NCBI RefSeq assembly: GCF_003369795.1
Contig: NZ_CP026730.1
Coordinates: forward strand, 1,302,001 to 1,366,000
DNA length: 64,000 nucleotides
Source of the DNA: Streptomyces sp. CB09001
GTDB taxonomy: Bacteria > Actinomycetota > Actinomycetes > Streptomycetales > Streptomycetaceae
Direction of reading: 5' to 3'
Shown piece after piece: positions 52,188-56,096 of the stretch. The notes below the pieces were generated by a model that searched no databases, had not been told where the DNA came from, and worked only from the letters and a program-made list of their open reading frames with translations. Numbering within the stretch: position 1 is the stretch's first letter; each line of letters starts with the position of its first letter. The translations under genes and the position numbers were made by a program.

Positions 52188-53396
52188 ATGACAGCTATGA
52201 CCCCCGGCTCGAACATCCCCCTCTCCGCCGCCCGCGTGACGGTGGACGTCGCCGCACCCGTGCGGCTCGACGTATCGGGCCTGCTGCTCACCGCCGACGG
52301 CAAGGTGCGCTCCGACGACGACTTCATCTTCTACAACCAGCCCACCGGGCAGGGCGTGACCTACCGCTCCGGCGGCGGCAGCGCCCCGGACGCGATCGTG
52401 GTCGACACCGCCGCCGTACCGCCGGGCATCGAGAAGATCGTCGTCACCGCCAGCCCGGACGCCGCCGGCCAGACCTTCCAGGGCATCGAACCGACCGCCA
52501 CCATCCGCAACGCGGACGACAACTCGGTGCTCGCCACCTTCACGCCCCCGCAGCTCGGCTCCGAGACCGCGCTGGTGATCGTCGAGGTCTACCTGCGCAA
52601 CGGCGCCTGGAAGGCCCGCGCGGTCGGCCAGGGCTACTCCAACGGGCTGGCCGGCATCGCCACGGACTTCGGCGTCACGGTGGAGGAACCGGCCGCCCCG
52701 GCGACGCCGCCGCAGCCCCAGGCGGTCACGCCACCGCCGCCCCCCGCGGCCGCGCCCACGATGCCCGCCGCTCCGCCCGCCGCGCCCGCCGCACCGCCGG
52801 CCCCCGCCCCGGGCACCGGCAAGATCAACCTGGACAAGGGCCGGGTCAGCCTCCAGAAGAACCAGACCGTCTCCCTGGTCAAGGGCGGCCGGCCGGTGCT
52901 CTCCCAGGTCAAGATGGGCCTCGGCTGGGAGCCGGCGTTCCGCGGCAAGGACATCGACCTGGACGCGTCCGTCATCGCCTACGGCCCGCAGCGCAACCAC
53001 ATCGACAGCTGCTACTTCGGCAAGCTCTCGATCGTGAACGGCGCGATCAAGCACTCCGGCGACAACCTGACCGGTGAGGGCGGCGGAGACGACGAGGTGA
53101 TCGTCGTCGACCTGGGCCGGCTGCCGCAGGAGGTCAGCGGCCTGGTCTTCACGGTGAACTCGTTCTCGGGCCAGAAGTTCACCGAGGTCGCCAAGGCCTA
53201 CTGCCGCCTCATCGACGCCGCGAGCGGCGAGGAGCTGGTCCGCTTCGACCTCACCGGCGCCGAGCCGCAGACCGGCGTGATGATGGCGAAGCTGATCCGC
53301 CAGTTCTCCGGCGAGTGGGAGATGACCGCCATGGGCGACTTCGTCAAGTCCCGCACGGTCCGCGGCATGGTGAAGCCGGCCGCGCAGGCGCTGTAG
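52188..53396 (+). CDS. TerD-family protein with two domains
   Basis: 402 aa. Two TerD domains are joined by a Pro/Ala-rich linker of about 50 residues (PATPPQPQAVTPPPPPAAAP onwards). Domain 1 has LRLDV-type start and SDDDFIFYNQPTGQG; domain 2 starts INLDKGRVSLQKNQTVSLV and has VKMGLGWEP, IDSCYFGKLS and DDEVIVVDLGRLP. TerD proteins bind calcium and are tied to tellurite and stress responses. It stands alone, without terZABC. ATG 52188 or 52197. Confidence 0.9.
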   Translation: MTAMTPGSNIPLSAARVTVDVAAPVRLDVSGLLLTADGKVRSDDDFIFYNQPTGQGVTYRSGGGSAPDAIVVDTAAVPPGIEKIVVTASPDAAGQTFQGIEPTATIRNADDNSVLATFTPPQLGSETALVIVEVYLRNGAWKARAVGQGYSNGLAGIATDFGVTVEEPAAPATPPQPQAVTPPPPPAAAPTMPAAPPAAPAAPPAPAPGTGKINLDKGRVSLQKNQTVSLVKGGRPVLSQVKMGLGWEPAFRGKDIDLDASVIAYGPQRNHIDSCYFGKLSIVNGAIKHSGDNLTGEGGGDDEVIVVDLGRLPQEVSGLVFTVNSFSGQKFTEVAKAYCRLIDAASGEELVRFDLTGAEPQTGVMMAKLIRQFSGEWEMTAMGDFVKSRTVRGMVKPAAQAL

Positions 53397-54042: not shown

Positions 54043-55644
54043 CTACCGCGCGTGCTCGTCCCGGGCGTCCCACGGCCAGTCGGCGTCCCGGCCCGCCTCG
54101 AGCAGCGGAACCATCCGGAACGCCGCGTCCGAGAGCCCTCCGAAGGTGTGCCGGTTCGCCCGGCCCGACGGACCGTGGCCCGCCCGGTACCCGGCGAGGT
54201 TCCAGGTGTACACGGGCACGTGCGGCGGCACCTGCTCGGTCGGGTCGCCGTACCGGCTGTGGGCGTACTGCTCGTCGGTGACGATCAGTACCCGGTCGTG
54301 CTTCCTGTAGTGGCGCCGCACCGCCTCGGTGGTGTGGGTGCCGCCGAGGTCGCCGAAGCGGGCCAGAACCTTCAGCACCGACTCGCCCTCGCGGTACTTC
54401 ACGCGGTTGCTCGACGAACCGAACTCGACCAGGTCCGCGTCGGCCGCCCGCAGCGCCAGCGCCGTGCCGAAGACGGCCGCCGCGTCGGCCCGGGTGAGCT
54501 CGGAGCGGTCCGACATACGCGAGAAGAACATCGAGCCCGAGCGGTCCACGAGGACCAGCGTCCGGCCGCCCAGCGCGGGCACGTTGGCCAGCGAGTGGCC
54601 GAGCGCCTGCTCCAGGGGGTACGACCAGCGCAGCGACGGCGCGTGCCGGTACGCGGCGAGGTAGCGGAAGGGGAACTGCCGCGAGCGCGCCACCTCGGCC
54701 GGGTCGCTGATCCTCGCCGCGACCCGGGCGGCGACCTCGTCCGAGACACCGGCCTCGTCGAAGTTCCGGAGGTTGCGGAGCAATGCCATCGCTCCCATGG
54801 ACGGGATCACCGCTTCCCAGGCGGCCTTGTCCATCGGCCCCTGGAGCCAGCCGGCCAGCATCTCCCACGTGATGCCCGCCGCCGTGAGCCGCTCGGCGCC
54901 GTCGGGTGCCGTGACCACGGCTCGCCGCTCGGCGACGGGCAGCGCCATCAGCTCGCGGTGCGCGGTCAGGACGCGGTTCGAGGCGGGCGGCACCGCGGTG
55001 TCCGGGTTGTGCCGGCGGTCGAGGGCGTACTGGAACAGCTCGCCCTGCCACGGCTTGTCCGGGTCGGGCGCCGCGTGCACCAGGTTGAGGATGTCGCCGA
55101 AGCGGTACCCCTTGGACGCGGTGTCGTACTTCAGCAGCGACTTGCCGTGGTAGAGCCGTCGCACGGCGTCGGCGATCCCCCGCTTGACCGGCTTGGGCAC
55201 GGCGCGGCCGTACGTCGCGGTCCAGTACGCGAGCAGCTCACCGGGCTCGTCGGGCCGCCGCAGGACGGAGGCGACGACCTGCCGGTTCGCCGGTCCGTCG
55301 GTGACTCCGGAGTCGAGCCGCGCCTTGACGTACTCGGCGGCGCCGACGATCGAGGCGGTGCGCAGGTTGCCCTCGCCACGCAGCCAGCCCAGCAGGCCGG
55401 CCGTCCAGGACGGGTCGGAGAGGGCGAGTTCGCGCACCAGCGTGGCGAAGCGGTCGTCGCGGGCGGCGCCGCTCTCGTAGTAGGTCTGCTGGGACACGAA
55501 GTTGGCCACCGACAGCAGAAAGAGCTCGGAGCGCGCGTCGCGCTCGGCGCCCCGGCCGCCCTCGCAGGTGCGCAGCACGCGGCCCGTCGAGGTCACGCGC
55601 GAGGTGGGCTGCGCCTTCGCGGCCTTGGTGTTGAATCGCGCCAT
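54043..55644 (-). CDS. rsr: TROVE domain protein (Ro60/Rsr homologue)
   Basis: Ring-shaped RNA-binding protein that binds Y RNAs and misfolded or structured RNAs. 533 aa, the usual Ro60 length. HEAT-repeat TROVE region from about residue 30 (SELFLLSVANFVSQQTYYESGAARDDRFATLV; ARLDSGVTDGPANRQVVASVL; FGDILNLVHAAPDP). The C-terminal von Willebrand A domain has the MIDAS motif TLVLVDRSGSMFFSRMSDRSELTRADAA and LIVTDEQYAHSRYG. ATG with GGGG upstream. Three Y RNA-like genes lie directly upstream on the same strand. Confidence 0.95.
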   Translation of the reverse strand: MARFNTKAAKAQPTSRVTSTGRVLRTCEGGRGAERDARSELFLLSVANFVSQQTYYESGAARDDRFATLVRELALSDPSWTAGLLGWLRGEGNLRTASIVGAAEYVKARLDSGVTDGPANRQVVASVLRRPDEPGELLAYWTATYGRAVPKPVKRGIADAVRRLYHGKSLLKYDTASKGYRFGDILNLVHAAPDPDKPWQGELFQYALDRRHNPDTAVPPASNRVLTAHRELMALPVAERRAVVTAPDGAERLTAAGITWEMLAGWLQGPMDKAAWEAVIPSMGAMALLRNLRNFDEAGVSDEVAARVAARISDPAEVARSRQFPFRYLAAYRHAPSLRWSYPLEQALGHSLANVPALGGRTLVLVDRSGSMFFSRMSDRSELTRADAAAVFGTALALRAADADLVEFGSSSNRVKYREGESVLKVLARFGDLGGTHTTEAVRRHYRKHDRVLIVTDEQYAHSRYGDPTEQVPPHVPVYTWNLAGYRAGHGPSGRANRHTFGGLSDAAFRMVPLLEAGRDADWPWDARDEHAR

Positions 55645-55710
55645 GGTGAATTCCCCCGAATTCTCGAAAGCTCGAAATCTCGAACATTTTCGGAGGGAGG
55701 CACGGCAGCG
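55645..55710 (-). promoter_or_regulatory. TROVE gene leader with ttcgaga repeats
   Basis: On the minus strand the leader reads ttcgaga, tttcgagc, tttcgaga, attcg in tandem, then gggggaattcacc before the ATG. The region is AT-richer than its surroundings and directly follows the 3' stem of Y RNA 3. It may hold the mRNA promoter or processing site. Confidence 0.45.
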
Positions 55711-55858
55711 GAAGGGTGCCCGAGGTCGGAATCGGCGACGGGACTGTGCGGATGCTCTGCCGAATTGAGCTACACCGACCCGAAGTCGATGACGGGATTC
55801 GAACCCGCAACCGTCCGATCAAAGGAAGTATCCGCTGCCTGCGCACCGGGCACCCTTC
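55711..55858 (-). ncRNA. Y RNA-like gene 3, with permuted tRNA module (YrlA-like)
   Basis: Minus-strand RNA of about 148 nt closed by a perfect 12-bp terminal stem (gaagggtgcccg / cgggcacccttc). The 5' strand holds the shared 24-nt motif (55847 to 55824). Inside is a permuted tRNA module: T-arm gcggg-ttcgaat-cccgt; an acceptor-like 7-bp stem catcgac / gtcggtg capped by ttcgg; TA; D-arm gctc-aattcggca-gagc. The 3' strand has GACCTC opposite the motif. The T and D loops match tRNA consensus. Confidence 0.85.
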
Positions 55859-55868
55859 GACTGCTGGG

Positions 55869-55943
55869 CCTCCCGAGATCAAGTGGGCTGCGGCATGGGA
55901 TTCTTTTGAGAGAAGAAGTAGCCGCGGCCCGCGCACCGGGAGG
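55869..55943 (-). ncRNA. Y RNA-like gene 2, minimal form without tRNA module
   Basis: Minus-strand RNA of about 75 nt. Terminal stem cctccc / gggagg, shared 24-nt motif on the 5' strand (55937 to 55914), second stem gggccgcggc / gccgcagccc with one mismatch, and a small apical hairpin ttctt-ctctcaa-aagaa. The 3' strand has CACTTGATCTC opposite the motif, resembling the CACUUGA strand of vertebrate Y RNAs. There are no T-arm or D-arm sequences. Confidence 0.75.
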
Positions 55944-55960
55944 TGCGTGAAGTTGTAGGT

Positions 55961-56096
55961 GTCCAGAGTTCAGGTCGGCGGAACCGACAAGGTGCTCTAA
56001 CCCCTGAGCTACACCGGCGCGTTGTGCCGGTGACGGGACTCGAACCCGTGGCCGCCCCATTTTGAGTGGAAGTAGGTCCTGCCTTCGCACCTGGAC
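55961..56096 (-). ncRNA. Y RNA-like gene 1, with permuted tRNA module (YrlA-like)
   Basis: Minus-strand RNA of about 136 nt. Terminal stem gtccag / ctggac, internal loop, then cagg / cctg. The shared 24-nt motif is at 56091 to 56068, with GGTGCGAAGGC close to the Ro60-binding strand of vertebrate Y RNAs. The permuted tRNA module has T-arm acggg-ttcgagt-cccgt, acceptor-like 7-bp stem caccggc / gccggtg capped by acaacgc, TA, and D-arm gctc-aggggtta-gagc. A -10-like TAGAGT lies 8 bases upstream. Confidence 0.87.

What the first reader, a model, noticed from the sequence alone, without database searches (positions are those of the whole stretch)
54043..56096. Ro60 ribonucleoprotein locus with three tandem Y RNA-like genes
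A full-length TROVE gene is preceded, on the same strand and within 450 bases, by three RNA-like units. Each has complementary ends, the same 24-nt motif on its 5' strand, and GA-N-CTC on its 3' strand. Bacterial Y RNAs next to rsr genes are known in Deinococcus, Salmonella and other lineages, but a trio of two tRNA-mimic forms and one minimal form points to several RNPs made from one Ro60 protein.
Basis: partly seen in the sequence, partly recalled or inferred. Interest (0 to 1): 0.93.

Follow-up and report, generated by a model that had tools for sequence, protein, structure and literature searches.

The report
Ro60 locus displaying three tRNA mimics
Next to its Ro60-family gene, this Streptomyces chromosome carries three predicted Y RNA genes that share one stem and show different pieces of a tRNA, two of them with a loop that matches the pattern of a tRNA anticodon loop; the RNAs likely ride on Ro60 as decoys for enzymes that cut or handle tRNAs.

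Summary
A Ro60-family (rsr/TROVE) gene at 54043-55644 (-) is preceded by three tandem RNA units: U1 56096-55961, U2 55943-55869, U3 55855-55714. They share one Y stem; U2 and U3 show compensatory change across Streptomyces rsr loci (0 of 500 shuffles). U3 is a tRNA-like core in circularly permuted order. U1 reads as a complete permuted tRNA, anticodon arm included. The 'minimal' U2 ends in an anticodon-type arm (loop CUCUCAA, as in this genome's tRNA-Glu CUC). Each of 81 Streptomyces loci has a 7-nt loop with U33 in U1 or U2; in U2 the three anticodon positions change most and U33 least. U3 alternates between class I and tRNA-Leu-like class II forms. Mixed arrays of 1-6 units occur in other actinobacteria and in phages; in six of ten phage loci fetched the Ro gene lies among or beside tRNA genes. 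Y RNAs and tRNA mimicry are known; what I could read names no anticodon arm, but key papers were not held. Transcription, Ro60 binding and the decoy role are untested; single-sequence folding supports the arms only weakly.

The parts
54043..55644 (-). rsr: Ro60-family (TROVE + vWA) protein, 533 aa
   Evidence: ORF; TROVE 51.7 bits; 9kop and 9l5y, E 2.4e-28; AlphaFold2 model, pLDDT 80.8; the 13 Foldseek matches with E <= 0.001 are all Ro60/Rsr/TROVE structures, among them 2nvo and 1yvp
55961..56096 (-). U1: predicted Y RNA with a complete permuted tRNA (anticodon arm, variable loop, T arm, acceptor stem closed by a 7-nt loop, D arm)
56055..56071 (-). U1 anticodon-like arm TTCCA-CTCAAAA-TGGGG ('anticodon' CAA)
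   Evidence: the pair closing the loop has probability only 0.23
56033..56049 (-). U1 T arm ACGGG-TTCGAGT-CCCGT
56012..56032 (-). U1 acceptor-like stem, 7 bp, closed by ACAACGC (no CCA end)
55994..56009 (-). U1 D arm GCTCAGGGGTTAGAGC
55869..55943 (-). U2: short predicted Y RNA whose tip is an anticodon-like arm
55901..55917 (-). U2 anticodon-like arm TTCTT-CTCTCAA-AAGAA (loop identical to the genome's tRNA-Glu CUC loop)
   Evidence: one search gives the pair closing the loop only 0.12
55714..55855 (-). U3: predicted Y RNA with a permuted class I tRNA core (T arm, acceptor stem with TTCGG loop, D arm, anticodon stem joined to the Y stem)
55792..55808 (-). U3 T arm GCGGG-TTCGAAT-CCCGT
55773..55791 (-). 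U3 acceptor-like stem, 7 bp, loop TTCGG
55754..55770 (-). U3 D arm GCTC...GAGC (class I form)
55648..55663 (-). inverted repeat GAATTCGGGGGAATTC just before the rsr start codon, with the GGGG of the likely ribosome-binding site in its loop
   Evidence: within 40 nt of the start in 67 of 81 loci; role unknown

Best explanation
This locus holds a Ro60-family gene and, just upstream on the same strand, three predicted Y RNA genes that share one Y-type stem and carry different pieces of a tRNA, and the RNAs likely form separate Ro60 particles that act as decoys for enzymes that cut or handle tRNAs at the anticodon arm. Shown by sequence and comparison: the shared stem, the permuted tRNA modules, the anticodon-type loops in U1 and U2, their conservation, and the coupled class I/class II switch in U3. 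Inferred: that the RNAs are transcribed, that the stem binds Rsr (by analogy with studied Rsr/Y RNAs), that Ro60 keeps the decoys stable and presents them, and that the targets are anticodon nucleases or other anticodon-arm enzymes. The variable anticodons and the different tRNA identities would let one Ro60 protein engage several such enzymes; the T/D/acceptor modules would engage enzymes that read the tRNA elbow, as reported for DusA and TruB on YrlA.
For: Anatomy. Anticodon-type loop, strict form (7-nt loop, Y32 U33 R37): 12 of 15 distinct U1 segments (shuffle mean 0.10), 42 of 54 U2 (0.12), 0 of 57 U3 (0.38), 30 of 71 units of other genera (0.47), 22 of 84 phage units (0.43). On the rsr tree the fewest changes at U2 loop positions 32-38 are 15, 2, 20, 21, 22, 6, 12: the anticodon varies most, U33 least; hairpin length is 13, 15 or 17 in 64 of 67. 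Each of 81 loci has at least one 7-nt loop with U33 in U1 or U2; the 20 loci without U1 and the 12 with short or missing U2 do not overlap, p 0.025, not corrected for relatedness. Joined at the permutation point, ARAGORN accepts 60 of 61 U1 as tRNA; shuffles of all rejoined units 0 of 3560. Context: in six of ten phage loci fetched the Ro gene lies among or beside tRNA genes, in one beside an RNA ligase. PMC7790460 (passages) raises YrlA as a possible competitive inhibitor of an anticodon nuclease; PMC10264068 (abstract and results) argues that phage tRNAs evade anticodon nucleases.
Against: No expression, binding or cleavage data. The same YrlA passage says that no YrlA fragments were seen, so Salmonella YrlA is not cut. 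Single-sequence folding gives the 7-nt loop in only 15 of 62 U2 and 24 of 61 U1 minimum-energy structures; for the window the closing-pair probability is 0.12 (U2) and 0.23 (U1). The whole-unit fold of U1 and U3 is no better than shuffles (z -0.23 and 0.05; U2 z -2.5). U3 has no strict anticodon-type loop, and its anticodon stem pairs in only 74% of cells. Variable positions 34-36 are also what neutral drift under a fixed loop shape would give; U1 varies mainly at position 34. Shuffle controls do not remove relatedness. No anticodon nuclease was identified here, and rtcB lies far away at 3018116 in the genome. 14 of 32 other-genus loci and 12 of 29 phage loci have no strict arm; four of ten phage loci have only 1-3 annotated tRNAs nearby.
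Confidence: 0.42

Rival explanations
1. Adaptors: each Y RNA tethers Ro60 to a different partner (PNPase or other RNA enzymes) through tRNA-like modules, as in the Deinococcus RYPER complex; the anticodon arm is one more docking surface, not a decoy.
For: RYPER is the bacterial Y RNA mechanism described in the papers I could read (PMC8394870 and PMC4726728, passages). One constant stem plus variable modules fits an adaptor.
Against: A docking surface should keep its sequence; the anticodon triplet is the least conserved part of the U2 loop, and U3 swaps between class I and Leu-like class II.
Confidence: 0.3
2. Regulators of tRNA modification or decay: the modules occupy tRNA-modifying enzymes, or guide Ro60 and PNPase to damaged tRNAs and tRNA fragments.
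For: DusA and TruB act on YrlA (PMC8394870, passage). In Shinella the rsr gene is flanked by rtcR and rtcB and two YrlA matches lie between rsr and rtcB.
Against: Does not by itself explain an anticodon-type arm alone on U2; rtcB is unlinked in this genome.
Confidence: 0.15
3. Recurrent capture without selection on the tRNA part: tRNA sequence is copied into Y RNA genes by recombination; only the Ro60-binding stem matters.
For: At least 22 class changes in 78 rows on the rsr tree; strong likeness to particular tRNA genes, e.g. L024 U3 to tRNA-Arg ACG, 22 of 24 and 29 of 31 aligned positions; one viral unit holds a tRNA-Thr-like D-anticodon-T run in normal order (L218 2694-2836).
Against: Compensatory changes in acceptor, D and anticodon stems (the one D-stem pair is the class switch itself), D arm and variable arm changing together in about 12 of 14 independent pairs and never opposed, p 0.0005, U33 kept in 60 of 62 U2 while 34-36 change.
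Confidence: 0.08
4. They are genuine permuted tRNA genes that yield working tRNAs.
For: ARAGORN accepts 173 of 178 rejoined sequences.
Against: The acceptor stem is closed by a short loop; a CCA follows the acceptor strand in only 8 of 61 U1 and 0 of 77 U3, and not in the window; U2 has no tRNA body; the outer stem of U3 is conserved and covaries.
Confidence: 0.03

Closest known systems
YrlA / bacterial Y RNAs (Rfam RF02553; Chen 2014, recalled, not held)
   Same: Next to rsr, complementary ends, T-acceptor-D order of the tRNA-like domain (alignment; PMC8394870 passage).
   Different: Window units score below Rfam's gathering value (45.1 and 30.9 against 69). The held description names D, T and acceptor arms; here U1 and U2 add an anticodon-type arm, and U3 has a Leu-like class II allele in 36 of 78 Streptomyces loci, 27 with a long variable arm.
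Salmonella rsr-yrlBA-rtcBA operon
   Same: One Ro60 gene with more than one Y RNA (PMC7790460, passages).
   Different: Here the RNAs lie upstream of rsr, there are three, and rtcB is not linked.
Deinococcus radiodurans Rsr-Y RNA-PNPase (RYPER)
   Same: Protein fold (2nvo, Foldseek E 3.1e-12); Y RNA beside rsr (recalled).
   Different: PNPase link not tested here; three RNA kinds at one locus.
Actinophage Ro-like loci (Streptomyces phages BRock, Alone3, GiJojo; Gordonia phage VanLee and others)
   Same: Same protein family (41-53% identity in the ten fetched) and same Y RNA plan, 2-6 units in each of 29 viral loci counted.
   Different: In six of ten fetched the Ro gene lies among or beside many true tRNA genes.
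Circularly permuted tRNA genes (recalled, e.g. red algae)
   Same: 3' half of a tRNA placed before the 5' half.
   Different: Closed acceptor loop, outer Y stem, mostly no CCA; not a tRNA gene.

Membership tests
Bacterial Ro60/Rsr (TROVE) | TROVE domain above curated cut-off | tested here: met
   51.7 bits, cut-off 23; only residues 272-332 aligned
Bacterial Ro60/Rsr (TROVE) | Ro60 ring fold with vWA domain | tested here: met
   AlphaFold2 model pLDDT 80.8, pTM 0.64; the 13 matches with E <= 0.001 are all Ro60/Rsr/TROVE
Bacterial Ro60/Rsr (TROVE) | D-x-S-x-S metal-site motif | tested here: met
   D366, S368, S370 invariant in 17 aligned proteins; the motif's meaning is recalled
Bacterial Ro60/Rsr (TROVE) | Binds a Y RNA | not testable with these tools
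   no binding data
Bacterial Y RNA | Lies beside rsr, same strand | tested here: met
   units also in 58 of 60 further actinobacterial TROVE loci, 32 of 34 from other genera
Bacterial Y RNA | Complementary ends with conserved internal motif, supported by covariation | tested here: met
   outer stem of U3: 4 of 9 pairs with change on both sides; inner stem of U2: 4 of 8; outer stem of U2 and both stems of U1 vary hardly or not at all, hence silent
Bacterial Y RNA | Permuted tRNA-like domain (T arm, acceptor, D arm) | tested here: met
   U1 and U3 yes; U2 no, it has only an anticodon-like arm
Bacterial Y RNA | Stable transcript bound to Rsr | not testable with these tools
   no RNA or protein data
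Rfam YrlA (RF02553) | Reaches the gathering score of 69 bits | tested here: not met
   U3 45.1, U1 30.9, U2 no match; so not filed as a member of that Rfam family, although the plan is the same
Anticodon arm (tRNA) | 7-nt loop, Y32, U33, R37, variable 34-36, paired stem | tested here: met
   by comparison; single-sequence folding is only weakly supportive, so structure probing is needed
Permuted tRNA gene | Matures to a tRNA with free CCA end | tested here: not met
   acceptor closed by a loop; loop starts NCCA in 0 of 77 U3 and 8 of 61 U1
RYPER (Ro60-Y RNA-PNPase) | PNPase tethered by the Y RNA | not testable with these tools
   no binding data

The most novel reading that the evidence does not exclude
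Actinobacterial and actinophage Ro60 is a display platform for a changing library of tRNA parts: whole permuted tRNAs with anticodons, anticodon arms alone, T arms, and class I or class II cores on one constant stem. The anticodon-bearing Y RNAs are sacrificial or blocking decoys in a conflict over tRNAs (anticodon nucleases of toxins, phage defence and development), which would explain the fast turnover of anticodons and tRNA classes and why phages carry Ro60 among their tRNA genes.
Probability: 0.33. Interest if true: 0.92.

Novelty: new variant of a known kind. Interest (0 to 1): 0.8.

Why it matters
Why bacteria and phages keep Ro60 and Y RNAs, and what the tRNA mimicry is for, is open. 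If Y RNAs show anticodon arms, the question becomes directly testable: which enzymes read those loops, and does losing them change tRNA cleavage or phage outcome. It would also link Ro60, a human autoantigen family, to the contest over tRNAs between bacteria and phages. On the practical side, some phage 'tRNA' annotations beside Ro genes are likely Y RNAs.

Tried and rejected
Whole-unit folding of single sequences: uninformative for U1 and U3 and only weakly in favour of the anticodon-type loop; comparative evidence was used instead. Sigma-70 promoter and terminator scan: nothing found, so operon or separate transcription stays open. A further YrlA match in the own genome (1965981-1966093) is a chance match across two tandem tRNA-Asn genes; YrlA also rings, below cut-off, in 7 of 14 control genomes, so weak YrlA matches away from rsr are not counted. 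ARAGORN on rejoined sequences also accepts 42 of 43 U3, where the arm was the best-pairing of ten windows, so it is not used to claim an anticodon arm in U3; 178 of 262 parsed units had such an arm and were rejoined, 173 were accepted, and 32 of 178 are called tRNA even in native order. The first hairpin count counted nested stems twice and was replaced. Permuted functional tRNA genes: rejected.

Rows dropped or set by hand: one search took 74 of 76 distinct U3 (77 extracted), 64 of 65 distinct U2, 55 distinct of 61 U1. In one search matches on the other strand, partial ones and weak ones (about E above 0.01) were left out by hand; partial or weak ones likewise (one, L224 1317-1411, at E 5e-7), while some short units up to E 0.035 were kept. 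In some searches 31 of 35 viral or phage loci were searched and two duplicates not counted. One search lists four U1 arms as if U3 (L012, L014, L017, L077); three are counted as without U3, and L014 (by eye) and three variant D arms (L023, L058, L074) as class I. Some same-genus loci look like loci under other handles, so the two sets are not independent.
Full report
WHAT IS THERE. The window is Streptomyces chromosome (positions 1302001-1366000 of a 7.79-Mb genome; close to S. coelicoflavus and S. tendae by its rsr gene). A 533-aa TROVE protein gene lies at 54043-55644 on the minus strand. It is the only TROVE match found in the genome. Its predicted fold matches Ro60, Rsr and phage TROVE structures, which fill the 13 matches with E <= 0.001. 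Between the upstream PhoX gene and rsr lie three RNA units, U1 56096-55961, U2 55943-55869 and U3 55855-55714, all on the rsr strand.

SHARED STEM. Each unit has an outer stem, an internal loop with GGTGCG on the 5' side and GA-N-CT on the 3' side, and an inner stem with a mismatch in the same place (U1 GGCAGGACC:GGTTCCGCC, U2 GGCCGCGGC:GCCGCAGCC, U3 GGCAGCGG:CCGTCGCC; read). Rfam YrlA finds U3 and U1 below its gathering score and not U2. A covariance model from U3 alone finds U1 at E 3.6e-17, and one from U2 finds U1 at E 3.5e-5. The three are therefore related. That the stem binds Rsr is inference from studied Y RNAs (PMC4726728 and PMC8394870, passages).

CONSERVATION. Of 214 encoded relatives in named genomes the best 80 were kept, all Streptomyces. 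With the window that makes 81 loci. U1 is in 61 of 81, full-size U2 in 69 of 81, U3 in 78 of 81. Compensatory change: U3, 74 sequences, 98 cells changed on both sides against 31.2 in shuffles; U2, 64 sequences, 20 against 2.8; both 0 of 500 shuffles, and higher than the versions slid by 1-3 columns (for U2 the count of pair types was reached by 6 of 500). In U3 the anticodon stem pairs in only 74% of cells. U1 (55 sequences, 93% mean identity) shows compensatory change at one pair only, so its stems rest on likeness to the others. Shuffles do not remove relatedness, which is why tree-based counts follow.

TRNA PARTS. U3 of the window has T stem 5 bp, T loop 7 nt, acceptor stem 7 bp closed by TTCGG, 2 nt, D arm, and an anticodon stem that joins the Y stem, in the order T arm, acceptor, D arm. 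L024's U3 matches the window genome's tRNA-Arg(ACG) in 22 of 24 and 29 of 31 aligned positions. In 36 of 78 loci U3 has instead a D arm whose best match is a tRNA-Leu (36 of 36), and 27 of these 36 have a long variable region of 21-30 nt; the other 9 have 16-18 nt, and 41 class I loci measured have 16-19 (the 42nd, L014, read by eye; Fisher p 1.4e-13). 21 of 27 long variable regions hold a hairpin of at least 4 Watson-Crick pairs (shuffle mean 4.9, maximum 13; 17 distinct 5' strands). On the rsr tree the class changes at least 22 times in 78 rows, and D arm and variable arm go the same way in about 12 of 14 independent pairs and never the opposite way (p 0.0005). The changes may include recombination of the array against rsr; the tree is a quick one with 34 of 78 inner branches starred.

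ANTICODON ARMS. Directly after the conserved UACUUC, U1 reads UUCCA-CUCAAAA-UGGGG and U2 reads UUCUU-CUCUCAA-AAGAA (the first UUC belongs to the motif). In Streptomyces 61 of 61 U1 form the 5-bp stem with a 7-nt loop, with C32, U33 and A38 invariant; CCG/CGG for CCA/UGG in L063, L069 and L081 keeps the pairing. 62 of 69 full-size U2 can be read with a 7-nt loop, U33 in 60 of 62; the hairpin is 13, 15 or 17 nt in 64 of the 67 that have one, i.e. 3, 4 or 5 pairs around 7. The fewest changes on the rsr tree at loop positions 32-38 are 15, 2, 20, 21, 22, 6, 12 for U2 and 0, 0, 14, 6, 2, 5, 0 for U1. The strict pattern (Y32 U33 R37) is seen in 12 of 15 distinct U1 segments, 42 of 54 U2 and 0 of 57 U3, against 0.10, 0.12 and 0.38 in shuffles. 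Several loops equal real anticodon loops of the window genome, e.g. CUCUCAA (Glu), CUGCAAA (Cys), CUUCCAA (Gly): 7 of 18 distinct U2 loops and 6 of 8 distinct U1 loops (44 real loops from the tRNAs). The window's own U1 loop is not one of them. All 81 loci have at least one 7-nt loop with U33 in U1 or U2; in 42 loci with both arms the two anticodons are never the same; the 20 loci without U1 and the 12 with short or missing U2 do not overlap (p 0.025, uncorrected for relatedness).

AGAINST THE ARMS. Single-sequence folding is lukewarm: the 7-nt loop is in the minimum-energy fold of 15 of 62 U2 and 24 of 61 U1; in the window the closing pair has probability 0.12 (U2, where a register with a 6-nt loop is preferred) and 0.23 (U1). 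Probing is needed.

TWO PERMUTATIONS. In U1 the break lies between D arm and anticodon arm, so that a whole tRNA is present; ARAGORN accepts 60 of 61 rejoined U1 (shuffles of all rejoined units: 0 of 3560), with 'anticodons' CAU 28, GAU 24, CUU 3, GCU 2 and CAA (window), GUU, GAA once each. In U3 the break lies at the anticodon loop and no strict arm is found. ARAGORN also accepts 42 of 43 rejoined U3, so this test alone does not show an anticodon arm.

BEYOND STREPTOMYCES. TROVE is found in 54 of 394 genomes drawn from the class. Of 60 TROVE loci taken, 58 have 1-5 units (merged by hand at about E < 0.01): 32 of 34 from other genera (1 unit in 11, 2 in 8, 3 in 6, 4 in 5, 5 in 2 loci) and 26 of 26 from the same genus; none in L084 and L116. 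In other genera the units include anticodon-type arms without a tRNA body (L094 4913-4986), T-arm-only tips (L110 4304-4386), T arm plus acceptor with another hairpin (L093 2047-2162), Glu-like D arms with loop CUCUCAA (L112 2154-2293), and a Gln-like D arm (L093 1886-2030) (the sorting of tips is by eye). 18 of 32 other-genus loci have a strict arm. In phages and viral contigs each of 29 loci counted has 2-6 units (E up to 0.05), 17 with a strict arm. Of ten phage records fetched, BRock, Alone3, pSt2308, GiJojo, Atuin and Neville carry the Ro gene among or beside runs of tRNA genes; VanLee, Kela, Frankenweenie and Quantum have only 1-3 annotated tRNAs nearby, Kela with an RNA ligase next to Ro. 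A Shinella Y RNA between rsr and rtcB has AGG-CUGUUAA-CCU after CUAC (seen by eye, not tested), so anticodon-type loops may reach proteobacteria.

MECHANISM. I commit to decoys as the likeliest role. Reasons: a loop shape that is kept while its anticodon changes, several tRNA identities on one stem, and tRNA-rich or ligase-bearing phage contexts. PMC7790460 (passages) names YrlA as a possible competitive inhibitor of an anticodon nuclease but also reports that YrlA fragments were not seen; PMC10264068 (abstract and results) argues that phage tRNAs are shaped by anticodon nucleases; tRNA cleavage in S. coelicolor is cited in PMC8628891 (passage; the original paper is not held). Jumbo-phage work places TROVE proteins among RNA-repair functions (PMC7824862, passage). 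The steps transcription, Rsr binding, and action on an enzyme are all inferred.

NOVELTY. Y RNAs beside bacterial rsr genes, more than one per locus, and tRNA mimicry are known. In the papers I could see, the mimicry is described for D, T and acceptor arms (PMC8394870 passage). Searches of the held library listed no paper that by title or abstract start concerns anticodon arms or class II mimicry in Y RNAs; in PMC8394870 12 of 19 'anticodon' places were seen and none is about a Y RNA arm. Most listed papers were not opened, and Chen et al. 2014, Wang et al. 2018 and two Wolin reviews are not held, so priority is unproven. Hence: new variant of a known kind.

Noticed in passing
L228 3274-3347 (phage Alone3), L230 3269-3343 (GiJojo), L231 3204-3275 (VanLee): Annotated tRNA genes just upstream of the Ro-like gene coincide with Y RNAs: ARAGORN calls the same stretch inside the Y RNA, so they are likely misannotated.
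   Followed up: partly
L218 2694-2836: Viral Y RNA with a tRNA-Thr(GGU)-like D arm, anticodon arm and T arm in normal, unpermuted order inside a Y stem (by eye): a third topology, perhaps a recent tRNA capture.
   Followed up: no
L002 7981-8093: Two tandem tRNA-Asn genes match the YrlA model across their junction: the permuted order could arise from the junction of tandem tRNA genes.
   Followed up: no
window 55648-55663: Inverted repeat GAATTCGGGGGAATTC with the likely ribosome-binding site in its loop just before the rsr start, in 67 of 81 Streptomyces loci: possible translational control.
   Followed up: partly
L026, L032, L062, L064, L068, L071, L074, L078, L079: U2 is reduced to a hairpin of about 30-33 nt that keeps only the outer stem and internal-loop residues; in L039, L067 and L072 that pattern was not found.
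   Followed up: partly
L117, L119, L122: TROVE loci in Streptomyces genomes that have two or three TROVE matches, each with one short Y-like unit of a different make (GATGCGCT...).
   Followed up: no
L240 and L241 (Rhizobium etli, Shinella plasmids): Several Y RNA-like units between rsr and the next gene (rtcB in Shinella); two YrlA matches in each, more units by eye.
   Followed up: partly
window 52188-53396: TerD-family gene near rsr; a TerD-family gene is also annotated near the Ro gene of phage Alone3, possibly coincidence.
   Followed up: no
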